From positions 1 through 26,659 of the IMG/VR virus record IMGVR_UViG_3300042451_001133: DNA of 26,659 nucleotides. One strand, written 5' to 3'. The notes beneath the pieces are model-generated. The model worked only from the letters and a program-made list of their open reading frames with translations, was not told the origin of the DNA and searched no databases. Shown here one piece after another: positions 1-5,112 of this stretch. How positions within the stretch are numbered: position 1 is the stretch's first letter; each line of letters starts with the position of its first letter. Both the position numbers and the translations under genes were made by a program. Origin of the DNA: a virus.

Positions 1-1039
1 TCCTACGACCTTTGATTAGCTCGCGCATGGCGTCGTTGATCCCCCGTTCGCAGATCTCGAAGCGCTCGGTCTTGTTCTTGGCCGGGACGATATGGGCGCA
101 GGTGTCGCAGGGGAGCGGATCTCCGTTCTTGTCCATGCTGATCTCATGGGCGCAGGTGGTCGGCCTGAATGTCCGGAGATGCTGCCAGAGGTCGTCGCTG
201 ATCTCGACGGGTGCCGGGATGGCCTCGGCGTACTGGCCGACGACGCGGAGGTAGCGCTTGCTCACCGGCTTGCCCTCTTCGTACTCGACTCCCTCGCTGA
301 TGTCGCTCCACTTGGCCCGCGCCACTTCGTTGTTGCGGAGCGCCAGCCTGGACATGAAGACGTAGACGATCCAAAGAGGGGAACGGGCTTTCAGCAGCTC
401 GTTGCCTTTGTTTTCTAGGGCCATCACTTCCTCCCTGGTGAAGGGGATGAATCCCGCTTCCCGATCGCCCTTGAAGTCTCGCTTGGCCCGGAAGCCGTCG
501 AGATTCGGAAGGATGAGGCCCTTGTAGAGTGACATGACCTTGGGGCTCACGATGCACCGTGCCTGGGTAAGGCTGGCATGGATACTATGGTCGGGTCGTC
601 CTTTCGCCCTCTCCTTCCCGATATAGCTGTCGAGGGTCTCCTCGGTGAGGATCGAGGAGGAGAGCACCCGAGGCTCATCCTTGCCAGTGACGACTCGCAG
701 GAGGGTCTCCATGGCGGAGATGTAGTTGTTCCTGGTGGCTGGTGCGATGTCCCGCTCGGCTGCCATGTAGCGGTCCAGGATCTCGCCTACGGTGGCGAGG
801 CCGGTAGTCGAGGCAGTCACGGGTTTCTTGGGCTCTTTCTTCCAGTCGTTCTTCTCCAGCTTGTCGAGCTCCACCTTGGCCTGCTTGACGGCCTGATCCT
901 TCAAGGTGGTCCCGAGGGTCTTCCAGATTGCCCGGCCATCCCGGCGGAGGCGGAGATAGAGATTGTCCCCACGCCGCCAAAGCGTGTAGCTTTTGCCCCG
1001 GTGAATAACGACGATCTCGGATCTTTCTGCGGTGCTCAT
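1..1039 (-). CDS. int: Tyrosine recombinase (phage integrase), 3' end cut off by window edge
   Basis: The minus-strand frame stays open from ATG at 1039 to the window edge, giving 346 residues. The motif ALRNNE (residues 233-238) followed by VARAKWSDI matches the Arg-I box of tyrosine recombinases, so R235 is the likely first catalytic arginine. Residues about 80-180 look like the SAM-like core-binding domain. The frame ends just before the expected HxxR box, so the second Arg, the His/Trp and the nucleophilic Tyr are off the window. An unusual Cys/His cluster (C296, H298, C311, C314, H316) interrupts the catalytic domain. The gene lies beside the attP-like region, as expected for a phage that integrates into a tRNA gene. 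It would catalyse integration and, with an excisionase, excision. The family call is secure; the C-terminus is unseen. Confidence 0.93.
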   Translation of the reverse strand, partial: MSTAERSEIVVIHRGKSYTLWRRGDNLYLRLRRDGRAIWKTLGTTLKDQAVKQAKVELDKLEKNDWKKEPKKPVTASTTGLATVGEILDRYMAAERDIAPATRNNYISAMETLLRVVTGKDEPRVLSSSILTEETLDSYIGKERAKGRPDHSIHASLTQARCIVSPKVMSLYKGLILPNLDGFRAKRDFKGDREAGFIPFTREEVMALENKGNELLKARSPLWIVYVFMSRLALRNNEVARAKWSDISEGVEYEEGKPVSKRYLRVVGQYAEAIPAPVEISDDLWQHLRTFRPTTCAHEISMDKNGDPLPCDTCAHIVPAKNKTERFEICERGINDAMRELIKGRR

Positions 1040-1052
1040 GGTAATGGTTCCT

Positions 1053-1278
1053 TGCTACGCCCCAGCCTGCTACACGTTCTGCTACACGTCAAGCAGGTTA
1101 AGAATGGTGGTCTCTGGTGGTTTCCAGTGGGAACGGTTTGTAGCATCGGACAGAGAGAAATGAGGGAATTGTCAACCTTCACAGAGTAACGCCGCTTTAG
1201 CTCAGTCGGTAGAGCATCTCATTCGTAATCATCTTTCTCTCTCTTTCGGCGGTCGTTTGCTACGCGTTTTGCTACACC
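1053..1278. other. Candidate phage attachment site attP: tRNA core with flanking arm-type repeats
   Basis: The 265 bp between the integrase start and the next gene contain a tRNA 5' half (1191-1229) flanked by repeats of the form TGCTACRC. Left copies are TGCTACGCC (1053-1061), TGCTACACG (1068-1076) and TGCTACACG (1080-1088). Right copies are TGCTACGCG (1258-1266) and TGCTACACC (1270-1278). An inverted relative, TTTGTAGCA, is at 1137-1145. The close pairs on both sides have the same 12-bp period. Paired direct repeats on both sides of a core, beside an integrase gene, are what lambda-type attP sites look like. That integrase binds these repeats is inference. Confidence 0.7.
1191..1229 (+). 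tRNA. 5' half of tRNA-Thr(CGT), the probable integration core
   Basis: Positions 1-39 of a tRNA can be read without gaps: acceptor strand GCCGCTT, TA, D-stem GCTC/GAGC around an 8-nt D-loop, A26, anticodon 5' stem TCTCA and loop TTCGTAA with U33 and anticodon CGT at 1224-1226 (Thr). T39 still pairs with A31, but the next base, C1230, cannot pair with C30 and the tRNA pattern stops. No variable loop, T-arm or acceptor 3' strand follows. It is therefore not a functional tRNA by itself. It is best explained as phage identity with a host tRNA-Thr gene up to the anticodon arm. Confidence 0.85.
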
Positions 1279-1304
1279 TTTTGGAGGCTGGCGGGGTTGG
1301 TAGT

Positions 1305-1499
1305 TTATTCCCTGGGTGGGTGTTTCTCGGGAGGTGTGGCGCCGGGTTTCTGGGGCCCGGCGATGGTGGTGATGTCCTTGCTGGCTCGCTGCATCCTGGT
1401 CAGTGCTCGGATGACCATGACGACGAATCCCGGCGGGTGCTTGGCGAGCAGGTCGCGGATGACCTGCTGCGCGGTGGCCTTGGCGTCCTGGTGGCTCAT
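1305..1499 (-). CDS. Hypothetical protein, 64 aa
   Basis: The ATG at 1499 overlaps the TGA of the upstream gene in an ATGA junction, which decides the start over longer options. The protein begins MSHQDAKATAQQVIRDLLA and ends in a proline-rich stretch (about residues 50-64, PQKPGATPPEKHPP). The N-terminal half could form an amphipathic helix. It is the last gene of a leftward pair with the 169-aa gene, and its 3' end runs to the edge of the attP region. I recognise no family. Expression by translational coupling to its neighbour is likely. Confidence 0.6.
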   Translation of the reverse strand: MSHQDAKATAQQVIRDLLAKHPPGFVVMVIRALTRMQRASKDITTIAGPQKPGATPPEKHPPRE

Positions 1500-2005
1500 G
1501 CTTCGGCCTCCTCTTCTGCATACCACCATCCGAGAGCATCCGCGGCCTGCTCGATCTTGCGAAGTGTGGCATATCCCTGGTGATCGTGGAATGTTTTGCC
1601 ACGCTTCAGGGTGGCGACTGCTTCGTCGTGGCGGAGGTAGTAGTGAGCATGGAAGTCATTCACCGCAGCAAACAAGGCATCAAACTCCTCGCGGGCAGTT
1701 GGGTTAAACAGAAATTCCTGATTGGTCTCGTTGTGCCAAACCTCGGCGATGGTCTGCGCTCCGTCTTCAAACATATCCATGCCTGGCTTTACCCACTTGT
1801 TCCACCAATCGCTCCCGACCTCATGGCCGGTACTCTCTTCCCTCGTAGCTTCCTCGAACTCCGAGCGGGTGAACTTCTGGAAGCTAAACCCGGCGGGTGC
1901 CTGGTCGCGGAGTGATTGAAGGAACTCGGCTTGATTTGAGAACGTGAATACTTGGACTTCTGAGGTGTGCGGAACTTGAACGTAAATGATTGCGTCTGTT
2001 TTCAT
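1496..2005 (-). CDS. Hypothetical protein, 169 aa
   Basis: The start is ATG at 2005 (MKTDAIIYVQVPH). It is preceded by a leader rich in A and C (minus strand) with no Shine-Dalgarno site. The first 30 residues look like a beta-rich segment (IIYVQV, VQVFTF), and the rest is helical, acidic and rich in aromatic residues (SDWWNKWVKPGMDMFEDG, ending WWYAEEEAEA). No signal peptide or membrane segment is visible. It is translationally coupled to the 64-aa gene downstream. No family is recognised. Its place between the integrase and the repressor suggests an accessory or lysogeny-associated gene. Confidence 0.7.
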   Translation of the reverse strand: MKTDAIIYVQVPHTSEVQVFTFSNQAEFLQSLRDQAPAGFSFQKFTRSEFEEATREESTGHEVGSDWWNKWVKPGMDMFEDGAQTIAEVWHNETNQEFLFNPTAREEFDALFAAVNDFHAHYYLRHDEAVATLKRGKTFHDHQGYATLRKIEQAADALGWWYAEEEAEA

Positions 2006-2052
2006 GGGTGTGGGTGGGTTGTGGTTAGTGTGGTGCGTTGTGGGTGGGCTGT

Positions 2053-2226
2053 CTAGTTTCTGAAGGGGTTGGGGAGTTGGAGGTTCGAGGGGCTGGACCA
2101 GTGCCAGCGCCCTTCAAACTTGGCGATCCATGCCCGGCAGGTGGTTTGCTTTGGTTCCTGCTTGGTGGCCGCGAGGCGGCGCAGGTAGTCACGACGCGCT
2201 AGGTCTTTGACTTTGCGGAGGTTCAT
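2053..2226 (-). CDS. Small basic hypothetical protein, 57 aa
   Basis: This short ORF runs from ATG at 2226 to TAG at 2053-2055. Its start overlaps the stop of the upstream 86-aa gene in an ATGA junction, which is the main evidence that it is real. The N-terminal half is strongly basic (MNLRKVKDLARRDYLRRLAA) and is followed by a Trp-rich part (CRAWIAKFEGRWHWSSP). It may bind nucleic acid, but nothing shows this directly. It is the last gene of a three-gene coupled set starting at 2785. Confidence 0.6.
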   Translation of the reverse strand: MNLRKVKDLARRDYLRRLAATKQEPKQTTCRAWIAKFEGRWHWSSPSNLQLPNPFRN

Positions 2227-2483
2227 GGCTGGGCCTCCACCTTATACACACTCCACCCTCGCGGCAGTTTTCCATACAGGTATGGGTGAACTTTTAGCCC
2301 CTGAAGCGCCGCGGCATTCTCGGCGTCTTTCTTGCGGCGATAGTTACCGACCATGGTGATTTTTGACCCATTAAAGGGGCTTACATACGTTTCTCCTGGT
2401 TCAGCAAATCCAAATCGGAAACGACTAAACCCCTTGGTTATGTCTCGCTCCTCGAATTTAGGAAGTTCTTGTAGTGAGTTCAT
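2223..2483 (-). CDS. Hypothetical protein, 86 aa
   Basis: The ATG at 2483 sits in an ATGA overlap with the upstream gene, and the stop overlaps the downstream 57-aa gene in the same way. Sequence features are a charged N-terminus (MNSLQELPKFEERDITKG) and a mixed beta-like middle with NGSKITMVGNYRRKKDAENAAAL. The YRRKKDAENAAALQGLKV segment resembles the small domains that help phage accessory proteins handle nucleic acid, but I cannot assign a family. The strict coupling on both sides supports expression as one unit. Confidence 0.65.
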   Translation of the reverse strand: MNSLQELPKFEERDITKGFSRFRFGFAEPGETYVSPFNGSKITMVGNYRRKKDAENAAALQGLKVHPYLYGKLPRGWSVYKVEAQP

Positions 2484-2785
2484 CCCTGCACCTCCTCGCC
2501 GGTTGCCTTGGCGATTGCTTCCCTAGCTTGTTCCCGTGCTAGGAAACGGAGTGTTTCACTATGAGGGGAACTTTCTGCCCGCTCCAATTCGATCAAAGCG
2601 GCCAAGAGTTCCGGCGCAGCCGCGATGAGTCGGGCATTGGCTCGTGCTTCTAGTGGCCATGCGCGTTGATTTCCCATTATGGCAATTATGCATGGAGCTT
2701 CGTCGGCCATTACTCCCAGTTCTCCCTTGCGGCCTATGTTTCCCATTACGCTCCAAGGGCCTGCGGTGTGCTGTGTTGTTGTCAT
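2480..2785 (-). CDS. Phage/prophage protein with HTAGPW and ANARLIAAAPELL motifs, 101 aa
   Basis: The protein starts MTTTQHTAGPWSVMG and contains ANARLIAAAPELLAALIELE at about residues 59-78. This pairing of an N-terminal HTxGPW motif with a helical ARLIAAAPEL(L) motif is found in a very common family of small proteins in phages and prophages, whose function is not known to me. The start is ATG at 2785 after an AC-rich leader (minus strand) without a Shine-Dalgarno site. It is the first gene of an ATGA-coupled set (101, 86 and 57 aa). A hairpin at 2843-2867 separates it from the gene upstream. Confidence 0.8.
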   Translation of the reverse strand: MTTTQHTAGPWSVMGNIGRKGELGVMADEAPCIIAIMGNQRAWPLEARANARLIAAAPELLAALIELERAESSPHSETLRFLAREQAREAIAKATGEEVQG

Positions 2786-2804
2786 GGTGTGCTGTGCCGG
2801 TTTG

Positions 2805-2820
2805 CGGTTGGCTCTTCCGT
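2805..2820 (-). promoter_or_regulatory. 16-nt conserved leader element, copy 1
   Basis: On the minus strand this reads ACGGAAGAGCCAACCG and lies about 20-35 nt upstream of the ATG at 2785. An identical 16-mer lies at 3268-3283, about 22-37 nt upstream of the ATG at 3246. The same position relative to two different genes suggests a shared promoter, operator or 5' UTR element. Which of these it is cannot be decided from sequence. Confidence 0.45.
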
Positions 2821-2842
2821 TTTGGTGTTGGTGTTGGTGGGT

Positions 2843-2867
2843 GGCTGCCGGGATCGGACCGGCAGCC
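2843..2867 (-). terminator. Stem-loop between two leftward genes
   Basis: GGCTGCCGG and CCGGCAGCC form a perfect 9-bp GC-rich stem around a 7-nt loop. It lies just after the stop of the 120-aa gene (2884) and before the leader of the 101-aa gene. No U-tract follows in either direction, so it is a weak intrinsic-terminator candidate. It could also stabilise the upstream 3' end or attenuate read-through. Confidence 0.5.
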
Positions 2868-2883
2868 GGTGAGGGGTCGCAGG

Positions 2884-3246
2884 TTAGTCGCAGATGCTCC
2901 GGTAATTATCTTCCCAGTCGTCCATGGTCATCGTCTCAGGGTCAAAAGGCATCGAGGCCGGAACGGGAGGCGTTACAGCTACGGGCTCTGGCTCGAGCAT
3001 TTGCAGAAACTCGGCACGAGTGACGGCTTGTGAGGTTGCTTCGAAGTTAGCGCCAGTCAATTCCCTATACCCCTGGTATGTTGCGCGCATTTCCCCAGTC
3101 ACTTTGCAGTGGCGGTGCCTGGTAGGCTCTCCGACGAGGAAGGCCCCGTTTTTGTGGTAGGCTGGCGGGAGACATCCGAGCATTTCCCAGAATGTATCTT
3201 CTGTGCAGGGTTCCCAGTTGGCTGCGGTGGTGTTTGCGGTTTGCAT
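2884..3246 (-). CDS. Hypothetical protein, 120 aa (possibly DUF1419-like)
   Basis: The ATG at 3246 (MQTANTTAANWEPCTEDTFW) is chosen over an in-frame GTG at 3309, because the region between holds an operator-like motif and the conserved 16-nt leader element. The middle reads FWEMLGCLPPAYHKNGAFLVGEP and later GYRELTGANFE. The pattern of a W/M-rich start, LPPA and FLVGEP is reminiscent of DUF1419-type phage and plasmid proteins, but I could not verify this. The C-terminus is Pro- and Asp-rich (MPFDPETMTMDDWEDNYR). Function is unknown. Confidence 0.65.
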   Translation of the reverse strand: MQTANTTAANWEPCTEDTFWEMLGCLPPAYHKNGAFLVGEPTRHRHCKVTGEMRATYQGYRELTGANFEATSQAVTRAEFLQMLEPEPVAVTPPVPASMPFDPETMTMDDWEDNYRSICD

Positions 3247-3267
3247 TTCATCATTTGCCCGTTTGGT

Positions 3268-3283
3268 CGGTTGGCTCTTCCGT
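3268..3283 (-). promoter_or_regulatory. 16-nt conserved leader element, copy 2
   Basis: This is identical to the element at 2805-2820 (minus-strand ACGGAAGAGCCAACCG). It sits in the same relation to the downstream ATG (3246), just beyond the operator-like GTTCCCACTGGAA motif at 3302-3314. Confidence 0.45.
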
Positions 3284-3293
3284 GGTGATACTC

Positions 3294-3315
3294 TCTCACT
3301 GGTTCCCACTGGAAC
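3294..3315. promoter_or_regulatory. Operator-like CTCACTGG/CCACTGGAAC element
   Basis: The stretch contains CTCACTGG followed by TTCCCACTGGAAC. The 13-mer GTTCCCACTGGAA (3302-3314) recurs exactly, inverted, at 1122-1134 in the attP region. TTCCCACTGGAAC recurs at 5779-5791, and CTCACTGG recurs in the inverted repeat at 18076-18099. Three of the four sites are intergenic. A regulator binding site is a reasonable inference; the protein is unknown. Confidence 0.4.
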
Positions 3316-3365
3316 GCAAGTAAAATCTTTAGAAATCTTTTATGGCCTGCGAAACGGCTTGGAAT

Positions 3366-3641
3366 CTAGCTCGGCGGGCGGTTGCGGTCGTCTTTCTCTG
3401 CTGCTCTCCGTGCTTTCTGGAGTGTGTTCGAGGGGATCTTCCCGGTGCCTGTCACTCGGGGGAACGTGGTGCCATTCAGGACTGAGGCCGTGACGGCGGC
3501 GCTGATATACCCGCCCCGGCTCAGTCCGCTCTCGGCGGCAAGGTAATCCATGGCGGCGAGGACCTCGACGCAGAGCGTAGAGGAGATAGAAGCCTTTCCC
3601 TTCCCAGGGCCGTTCCCGGTGCGTTCGTTCTTCTTGGTCAT
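3366..3641 (-). CDS. Putative ribbon-helix-helix DNA-binding protein, 91 aa
   Basis: The start is ATG at 3641, overlapping the TAA of the upstream lipoprotein gene by one base. After a basic, Gly-rich N-terminus (MTKKNERTGNGPGKGKA) comes a strand-helix-helix pattern, ASISSTLCVEVLAAMDYLAA then SGLSRGGYISAAVTASVL (about residues 17-54). This fits the RHH fold, in which the strand contacts operator DNA. The C-terminus is basic. It is the last gene of the leftward lysogeny-side operon. It could be a secondary repressor or antitoxin-like regulator; no toxin gene is seen beside it. Confidence 0.6.
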   Translation of the reverse strand: MTKKNERTGNGPGKGKASISSTLCVEVLAAMDYLAAESGLSRGGYISAAVTASVLNGTTFPRVTGTGKIPSNTLQKARRAAEKDDRNRPPS

Positions 3642-4700: not shown

Positions 4701-4918
4701 TACCAGCCGGAGAGCTAACTCGGCTGGAAGTCTGGCCGTCGAGGAAGACAAGGGTGATCCTCGAAAAGCTGAAACCTGCATGGCTCCTCGCCATGCATCC
4801 GGGCGTTTCTTTTTTTTATAGGGTAGAAGTCAATAATGTGACGCAGGCATTCACAGAAGATCCCATCAAGGCGCGAAACGTCTTCCGGGATGAGTGCCGA
4901 TTCGCTTGCAAGGCATGA
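4697..4918 (+). CDS. Hypothetical protein, 73 aa
   Basis: The ATG at 4697 is chosen because it overlaps the upstream stop (ATGA) and the frame ends in another ATGA with the next gene. The protein reads MIPAGELTRLEVWPSRKTRV and later VEVNNVTQAFTEDPIKARNVF, with mixed beta and helical character. It contains a second T8 run (4810-4817) in a context, TTTC-T8-ATAGGG, almost the same as in the preceding gene. Function is unknown. Confidence 0.6.
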   Translation: MIPAGELTRLEVWPSRKTRVILEKLKPAWLLAMHPGVSFFYRVEVNNVTQAFTEDPIKARNVFRDECRFACKA

Positions 4919-5112
4919 GCGCCACACCCTCCACCCCGGCCCGCTGGCTGACTTCGAGGGAGGTCTGTGACCGTCTCGGGATCCACTTGAACACGCTCGC
5001 CCGTTACGTCGCTGCTGGCGAGTTCGGCAAGGTCTTGTTCCTATCCCGAAAGGATCGCCGCATCTCTGAAACTGCCCTGGATGCGTTCATCGCTCGCCGA
5101 CTTGTAGGTTGA
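4915..5112 (+). CDS. Excisionase/MerR-type helix-turn-helix protein, 65 aa
   Basis: The ATG at 4915 overlaps the upstream stop. The core reads WLTSREVCDRLGIHLNTLAR, then YVAAGEFGKVLFLSRKDRR and ISETALDAFIARR, which matches the layout of excisionase-family or DNA-binding HTH_17 proteins: a helix-turn-helix, a beta wing that recognises DNA, and a closing helix. Proteins of this size next to a phage immunity region often act as Xis, directing the integrase toward excision. The integrase is on the other side of the immunity region, so a transcription-factor role is also possible. Confidence 0.78.
   Translation: MSATPSTPARWLTSREVCDRLGIHLNTLARYVAAGEFGKVLFLSRKDRRISETALDAFIARRLVG

What the first reader, a model, noticed from the sequence alone, without database searches (positions are those of the whole stretch)
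1053..1278. attP that carries the 5' half of a tRNA-Thr gene, flanked by 12-bp-spaced arm repeats
The sequence 1191-1229 matches tRNA positions 1-39 and then diverges inside the anticodon stem. TGCTACRC repeats lie on both sides, with pairs spaced 12 bp (1068/1080 and 1258/1270). Most tRNA-integrating phages carry the 3' half. With a 5' half, the restored tRNA would keep the host 3' part but gain phage sequence upstream, so the phage may have to supply the promoter.
Basis: partly seen in the sequence, partly recalled or inferred. Interest (0 to 1): 0.7.

Follow-up and report, generated by a model that had tools for sequence, protein, structure and literature searches.

The report
Phage attachment site carrying tRNA-Thr front half
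This is the docking site of an uncultured virus of freshwater Verrucomicrobia: it carries the front (5') half of a host threonine tRNA gene, so that when the virus inserts itself it rebuilds the gene from the promoter side, a known but uncommon layout in which the host's own tRNA promoter is cut off.

Summary
Confirmed and extended. Window 1191-1229 is nt 1-39 of tRNA-Thr(CGT), flanked by 12-bp-spaced TGCTACRC pairs beside a lambda-type integrase gene (2-1039, minus strand, cut by the window edge). Host tRNA genes with the same 39 bases exist in Spartobacteria MAGs. One related viral contig (L007) is a natural left junction: 64/64 bases of host sequence upstream of that tRNA, the 39 shared bases, then phage. 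All 13 integrase relatives in IMG/VR carry the 5' half (98.5% mean identity, against 46% and 51% in the flanks), with arm pairs at fixed positions whose sequence changes phage by phage. Distant relatives integrated in tRNA-Lys and tRNA-Ser show both ends: a restored tRNA beside int, and a displaced 5' half that diverges right after the anticodon loop. So this is an attP with crossover in the anticodon loop and 5'-half capture. The kind is known (4% of Islander islands; archaeal pTN3) but uncommon. The promoter idea is only partly borne out: Ser-type relatives carry a host-type promoter (TTGCCA-N16-TATTAT) on the element side, but no sigma-70-like promoter is recognisable before the window's 5' half. 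A right junction of the Thr phages was not found.

The parts
2..1039 (-). int: lambda-type tyrosine integrase, N-terminal 346 aa, cut off by the window edge
   Evidence: Translation. Full-length relative L005 (423 aa) hits phrog_1 integrase at 1.7e-12; its AlphaFold model has lambda Int as top PDB match; Pfam gives no hit for it.
1053..1087 (+). P-arm (int side) sites TGCTACGC 1053-1060, TGCTACAC 1068-1075, TGCTACAC 1080-1087; the last two 12 bp apart
   Evidence: A pair at about -123/-111 from tRNA nt 1 recurs in most relatives, in a phage-specific sequence.
1139..1145 (-). Reversed partial arm site TGTAGCA
   Evidence: function inferred.
1151..1186 (+). Two CAGAG boxes (1151-1155, 1182-1186), 31 bp apart; likely accessory-protein sites
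   Evidence: At -40 and -9 from tRNA nt 1 in most Thr relatives. The motif also occurs around the core of a 3'-half relative, L057. Function inferred.
1191..1229 (+). 5' half of tRNA-Thr(CGT), nt 1-39: the attP/attB identity block
1222..1228 (+). Anticodon loop TTCGTAA: proposed 7-bp overlap (crossover) region
   Evidence: Identity ends at nt 39 here and directly after the anticodon loop in the tRNA-Lys relatives. Cleavage sites inferred from the lambda-type/tRNA precedent, not tested.
1237..1244 (+). CTCTCT box on the right (P') side, inverted relative to CAGAG
   Evidence: CTCTG at +49 in several relatives.
1258..1277 (+). P'-arm pair TGCTACGC/TGCTACAC, 12 bp apart
   Evidence: a pair at about +66/+78 in all 12 phages compared.
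1040..1190 (.). 151-bp int-tRNA intergenic region; would be the upstream region of the restored tRNA after integration
   Evidence: No sigma-70-like promoter found.
4918..5112 (+). Small HTH_17 protein, a possible excisionase/directionality factor (weak candidate)
   Evidence: Pfam HTH_17 5.3e-11; role inferred from domain type only.

Best explanation
Window 1053-1277 is the attP of a temperate tailed phage of Spartobacteria-like Verrucomicrobiota. The phage's lambda-type integrase binds paired arm sites on both sides and recombines attP with the host tRNA-Thr(CGT) gene inside the anticodon loop (TTCGTAA). attP carries tRNA nt 1-39, so the host 5' half with its native promoter is displaced to attL, while at attR the phage 5' half joins the host 3' half into a complete tRNA gene. 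That gene now lies 151 bp from, and divergent to, int, so its transcription must start in phage sequence. Shown: sequence, host match, a natural attL, conservation, arm-site layout, and both junctions in distant relatives. Inferred: exact cleavage points, Int binding to the repeats, and expression of the restored tRNA.
For: Host genes with the identical 39 bases, in MAGs mostly labelled Spartobacteria or Verrucomicrobiota. Natural attL: L007 has 64/64 host bases, 39 shared bases, then phage sequence. The in silico attR is called tRNA-Thr by ARAGORN and attL is not. 13 of 13 integrase-sampled viral relatives carry the 5' half; 12 of them give 98.5% identity in the half against 46% upstream and 51% downstream. 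12-bp arm pairs at fixed places, with a phage-specific sequence shared between P and P'. Restored and displaced halves in tRNA-Lys (G141, G168) and tRNA-Ser (G342) elements. Lambda Int is the best structural match.
Against: No attR junction of a Thr-type phage was found. L007 carries only 64 bp of host at a contig end, so an assembly join across the 39-bp repeat cannot be wholly excluded. No recognisable promoter upstream of the half. The window's int is truncated and gives no Pfam hit.
Confidence: 0.94

Rival explanations
1. Same attP, but the restored tRNA is silent. The 5' half is kept only because the integrase needs it as DNA, and the host lives on tRNA-Thr(TGT), which can read ACG by wobble.
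For: No sigma-70-like promoter upstream of the half. The host MAGs checked also have a tRNA-Thr(TGT) gene.
Against: Nt 1-22, beyond the expected core contact, are 97% identical across phages whose flanks are 46-51% identical, and the only variation is in the D-loop. In G141 the displaced half carries a change in the acceptor strand while the restored half pairs with the 3' strand. Both point to selection for a working tRNA.
Confidence: 0.2
2. The 39 bases are a decayed phage-borne tRNA gene or a captured fragment with no role in integration.
For: The phage carries only a partial tRNA.
Against: The end point is always the anticodon loop, the half always sits between arm-site pairs beside int, it is conserved above its flanks, and L007 joins host and phage exactly there.
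Confidence: 0.02
3. tRNA-dependent lysogeny as in some mycobacteriophages: integration wrecks the tRNA and a phage tRNA gene replaces it.
For: Same target class and integrase type (PMC10865867).
Against: That mode has a common core of about 8-10 bp and a complete phage tRNA gene. Here the core is 39 bp, the tRNA is rebuilt in silico, and ARAGORN finds no phage tRNA in the 26.7-kb fragment.
Confidence: 0.02

Closest known systems
Lambda-type tyrosine-integrase attP in tRNA anticodon loops (3'-half capture, e.g. mycobacteriophages in PMC10865867)
   Same: Arm-site pairs on both sides, common core of 30-45 bp, tRNA rebuilt at one junction, crossover in the anticodon loop
   Different: The identity block is the 5' half, so the tRNA is cut from its native promoter instead of its native 3' flank
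Archaeal pTN3-like integrases (PMC5495485, PMC8371274)
   Same: attP = 5' half of a tRNA (41 bp of tRNA-Leu); the restored tRNA is separated from its original promoter
   Different: pTN3 attP lies inside int and splits it on integration (suicidal type). Here int stays intact, 151 bp away, in a bacterial phage with arm sites
The 159 islands with a 5' tDNA fragment in Islander (PMC4383910)
   Same: Same configuration: displaced 5' fragment at one end, whole tRNA at the other
   Different: Counted but not described there by family; here a conserved phage clade with matching int, arm sites and host
tRNA-Lys and tRNA-Ser elements of Verrucomicrobiota found here (G168, G141, G139, G342, G393)
   Same: Related integrase, int divergent from the restored tRNA, TGCTAC-like 12-bp arm pairs, 5'-half capture
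   Different: Other tRNA targets. The Ser type carries a host-type promoter before the half; the G168 element carries a restriction system rather than evident phage genes in the 20 kb read

Membership tests
tRNA-targeting attP of a lambda-type tyrosine integrase | Integrase gene next to the site | tested here: met
   int 2-1039; phrog_1 and the lambda Int fold for the full-length relative
tRNA-targeting attP of a lambda-type tyrosine integrase | Identity block with a host tRNA gene, ending at the anticodon or T loop | tested here: met
   39 bp, nt 1-39, ends beside the anticodon loop
tRNA-targeting attP of a lambda-type tyrosine integrase | Arm-type repeats on both sides | tested here: met
   binding itself not tested
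tRNA-targeting attP of a lambda-type tyrosine integrase | Integrated relatives with junctions at the site | tested here: met
   attL in L007; both ends in the Lys and Ser relatives
5'-half capture type (pTN3-like layout) | Restored tRNA has element-derived 5' part and host 3' part; displaced 5' half at the other end | tested here: met
   attL seen for the Thr phage; attR only in silico for Thr, but real in Lys and Ser relatives
5'-half capture type (pTN3-like layout) | Restored tRNA transcribed from an element promoter | tested here: inconclusive
   Host-type promoter in Ser-type elements; none recognised in the window family
pTN3 suicidal integrase | attP inside int, gene split on integration | tested here: not met
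   attP lies 151 bp outside int
tRNA-dependent lysogeny | Short core (about 10 bp), tRNA not restored, phage tRNA of the same isotype | tested here: not met
   39-bp core, tRNA restored in silico, no tRNA gene in this fragment

The most novel reading that the evidence does not exclude
The prophage puts a host tRNA gene under its own control: after integration tRNA-Thr(CGT) is read from an unrecognised promoter in the 151-bp arm region that also carries the int start and the Int/accessory sites (CAGAG boxes at -40 and -9), so occupancy by Int or the excision factor could switch the tRNA on or off with the lysogenic state.
Probability: 0.15. Interest if true: 0.65.

Novelty: new member of a known kind. 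Interest (0 to 1): 0.42.

Why it matters
It documents 5'-half tRNA capture as a conserved trait of an uncultured phage clade and of related Verrucomicrobiota elements at several tRNAs, ties these phages to hosts, and gives a clean natural comparison of elements with (Ser type) and without (Thr type) an evident replacement promoter, which makes the question of how a promoter-severed tRNA is kept alive testable.

Tried and rejected
Thr-type attR in IMG/VR: none with three D-loop variants nor with a 28-base tRNA pattern crossing the divergence point. Prophages of the Thr type in genomes of the host family, order, class and phylum: none beyond the G004 contig, which is in attP form. L013 was rejected: its 5' end differs (GCCGAATTAGC) and neither the arm sites nor the flanks match. 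The CAGAG boxes as a tRNA promoter: not favoured, because the same motif surrounds the core of a 3'-half relative (L057) and CAGAGTAA is found nowhere else in the window. The rule 'identity block always on the int side' was rejected: L103, L109, L110 and L114 have a 3' half on the far side. One origin against several for 5' capture: tree not resolved (3 changes at least on the best tree, but starred branches force only 1). Cultured relatives: none by integrase in INPHARED.

Full report
Observation. The 39 bases at 1191-1229 are present as described and equal nt 1-39 of tRNA-Thr(CGT). The window is itself a linear IMG/VR virus record of 26,659 bases, with a DnaB-like helicase, terminase, major head protein and a weak portal match. 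The TGCTACRC count is far above chance (7 against 0.58 expected). Directly to the left lies an integrase gene on the minus strand with its start at 1039. ARAGORN and Rfam find no complete tRNA.

Host. A scan of 84,980 species genomes for the half plus two host bases gave 17 hits; 16 are intact tRNA-Thr(CGT) genes, most of them in MAGs titled Spartobacteria or other Verrucomicrobiota. The C17 variant carried by the window (AGTCGG) occurs in three of these hosts (L016, L021, L026) and in most of the phages; other hosts have T17, as have the phages L033, L034 and L035. One MAG (G004) holds both an intact tRNA and a separate contig with an attP of this family (L019 and L021).

Natural junction. 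Viral contig L007 begins with 64 bases identical, 64 of 64, to the DNA upstream of tRNA-Thr(CGT) in Spartobacteria MAG RH-27jun17-232 (L026), continues through the 39 shared bases, and then runs as phage, with blocks 77-96% identical to the window. This is attL: host promoter plus displaced 5' half joined to the phage right arm. Joining the window's left side to the host 3' half in a script gives a tRNA-Thr(CGT) by ARAGORN with four hosts; the reciprocal attL gives none. A Thr-type attR was not found in IMG/VR.

Conservation. Thirteen viral loci found by the integrase alone, without using the tRNA, all carry the half at the same place. In 12 of them the half has a mean pairwise identity of 98.5% (nt 1-22: 97.4%), against 46% for the 39 bases upstream and 51% downstream. 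The integrases are as little as 33% identical to L005. The only variants seen are in the D-loop (positions 16-17). This indicates selection to keep the half working as tRNA sequence.

Arm sites. In each of 12 phages a 12-bp-spaced pair lies at about +66/+78; on the P side a pair at about -125/-111 was recovered in most, though in L011 and L015 the automatic search chose another place while TGCTACG copies still lie at -122 and -111. The sequence differs between phages (TGCTACRC, TTTGCTGTGG, TTTTGCGTCGG) and in most phages the P and P' arms share the same version above chance. That is what one arm-binding domain recognising both arms would leave. The L005 integrase model has an N-terminal beta domain and lambda Int bound to DNA as best PDB match; the model is moderate (mean pLDDT 78.8, pTM 0.51), and the sequence profile also reaches only lambda Int (E = 0.003). 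R235, R353, H375 and Y385 are invariant among the Thr-type integrases, with Y350 at the usual histidine position (the catalytic assignment is mine).

Relatives with both ends. Integrase relatives in Verrucomicrobiota genomes show the reaction finished. In G141 contig 265 an intact tRNA-Lys(CTT) with integrase-like sequence upstream (no long integrase frame remains there) lies 27.2 kb from a displaced 5' half; the two agree to the end of the anticodon loop (CTCTTAA) and then diverge, with a 12-bp arm pair following the displaced half. The two 5' halves differ in the acceptor strand (GCACCGTT restored, GCACCATT displaced); only the restored one pairs fully with the 3' strand, which also suggests a crossover 3' of nt 6. 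In G168 contig 58 an intact integrase and tRNA-Lys lie 45 kb from a displaced 5' half; integrase-like sequence upstream of that half suggests a tandem insertion. G139 has the uninserted attP form for tRNA-Lys. In G342 a restored tRNA-Ser(CGA) lies beside int, and on another contig the displaced half lies beside the host upp gene, followed by the right arm and a terminase gene about 10 kb on. Intact tRNA-Arg and tRNA-Pro genes lie divergent from related integrases in three more loci (L100, L101, L104), without displaced halves checked. Other relatives use a conventional 3' half (L057, L059, L090).

Promoter. Host tRNA-Thr(CGT) genes have TTGCC[AT]-N16-TAnnnT 14-20 bp upstream in most MAGs. After 5'-half capture this promoter stays at attL. 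In the Ser-type elements the element side carries TTGCCA-N16-TAGTAT or TTGCCA-N16-TATTAT at the same distance (p about 0.007 each by shuffling with an ad hoc score), while the host's own TTGCCT-N17-TACCAT remains at attL. In the window family and the Lys type no such element is found near the tRNA (best p 0.13), nor in the window within 150 bp upstream or across 1-3400. Either the promoter is of another type, or it is weak, or the tRNA is silent. tRNA-Thr(TGT) is present in the host MAGs checked, so loss of tRNA-Thr(CGT) may be tolerated (inference from wobble rules).

Consequences of layout (inference). In circular phage DNA the leftward genes at 1305-3309 could read through attP into int; in the prophage they are parted from int, which then depends on its own promoter in the 151-bp region shared with the restored tRNA.

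Known or new. Islander reports 3760 islands with a 3' and 159 with a 5' tDNA fragment (PMC4383910). pTN3-like archaeal integrases use a 5' half, leave the tRNA apart from its promoter, and the review calls the situation seldom met in bacteria (PMC8371274, PMC5495485). So the kind is known; this is a well-supported new member, a conserved phage clade with no cultured relative by integrase in the phage collection searched.

Noticed in passing
L123 (G168:C58:43000-62900): The 45-kb tRNA-Lys element with 5'-half capture carries type I restriction R and S genes and a reverse transcriptase gene beside its integrase, so it looks like a defence island rather than a phage.
   Followed up: partly
L103, L109, L110, L114: Related integrases have a 3' tRNA half with the anticodon end facing int, a different geometry from both the window and L057/L059; which half is kept and on which side of the crossover seems to vary within the integrase group.
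   Followed up: partly
L019, L021 (MAG WB4_3_0938, titled Proteobacteria): The tRNA-Thr/tRNA-Ser neighbourhood and promoters match Spartobacteria MAGs, and the genome falls in the same family set as G008, so the record title is probably wrong.
   Followed up: no
Integrase position 350 of L005 (alignment A1): The Thr-type integrases have Tyr where the catalytic His of HxxR usually stands (YELRR), while relatives L090 and L057 have His.
   Followed up: no
window 4918-5112 +: A 64-aa HTH_17 protein, a possible excisionase or other small DNA-binding protein, lies away from int.
   Followed up: partly
window 1151, 1182, 1210: CAGAG boxes at -40 and -9 are followed by TAGAGC inside the tRNA D-arm itself at +19, giving spacings of 31 and 28 bp; whether the tRNA's own sequence serves as a third box is unknown.
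   Followed up: no
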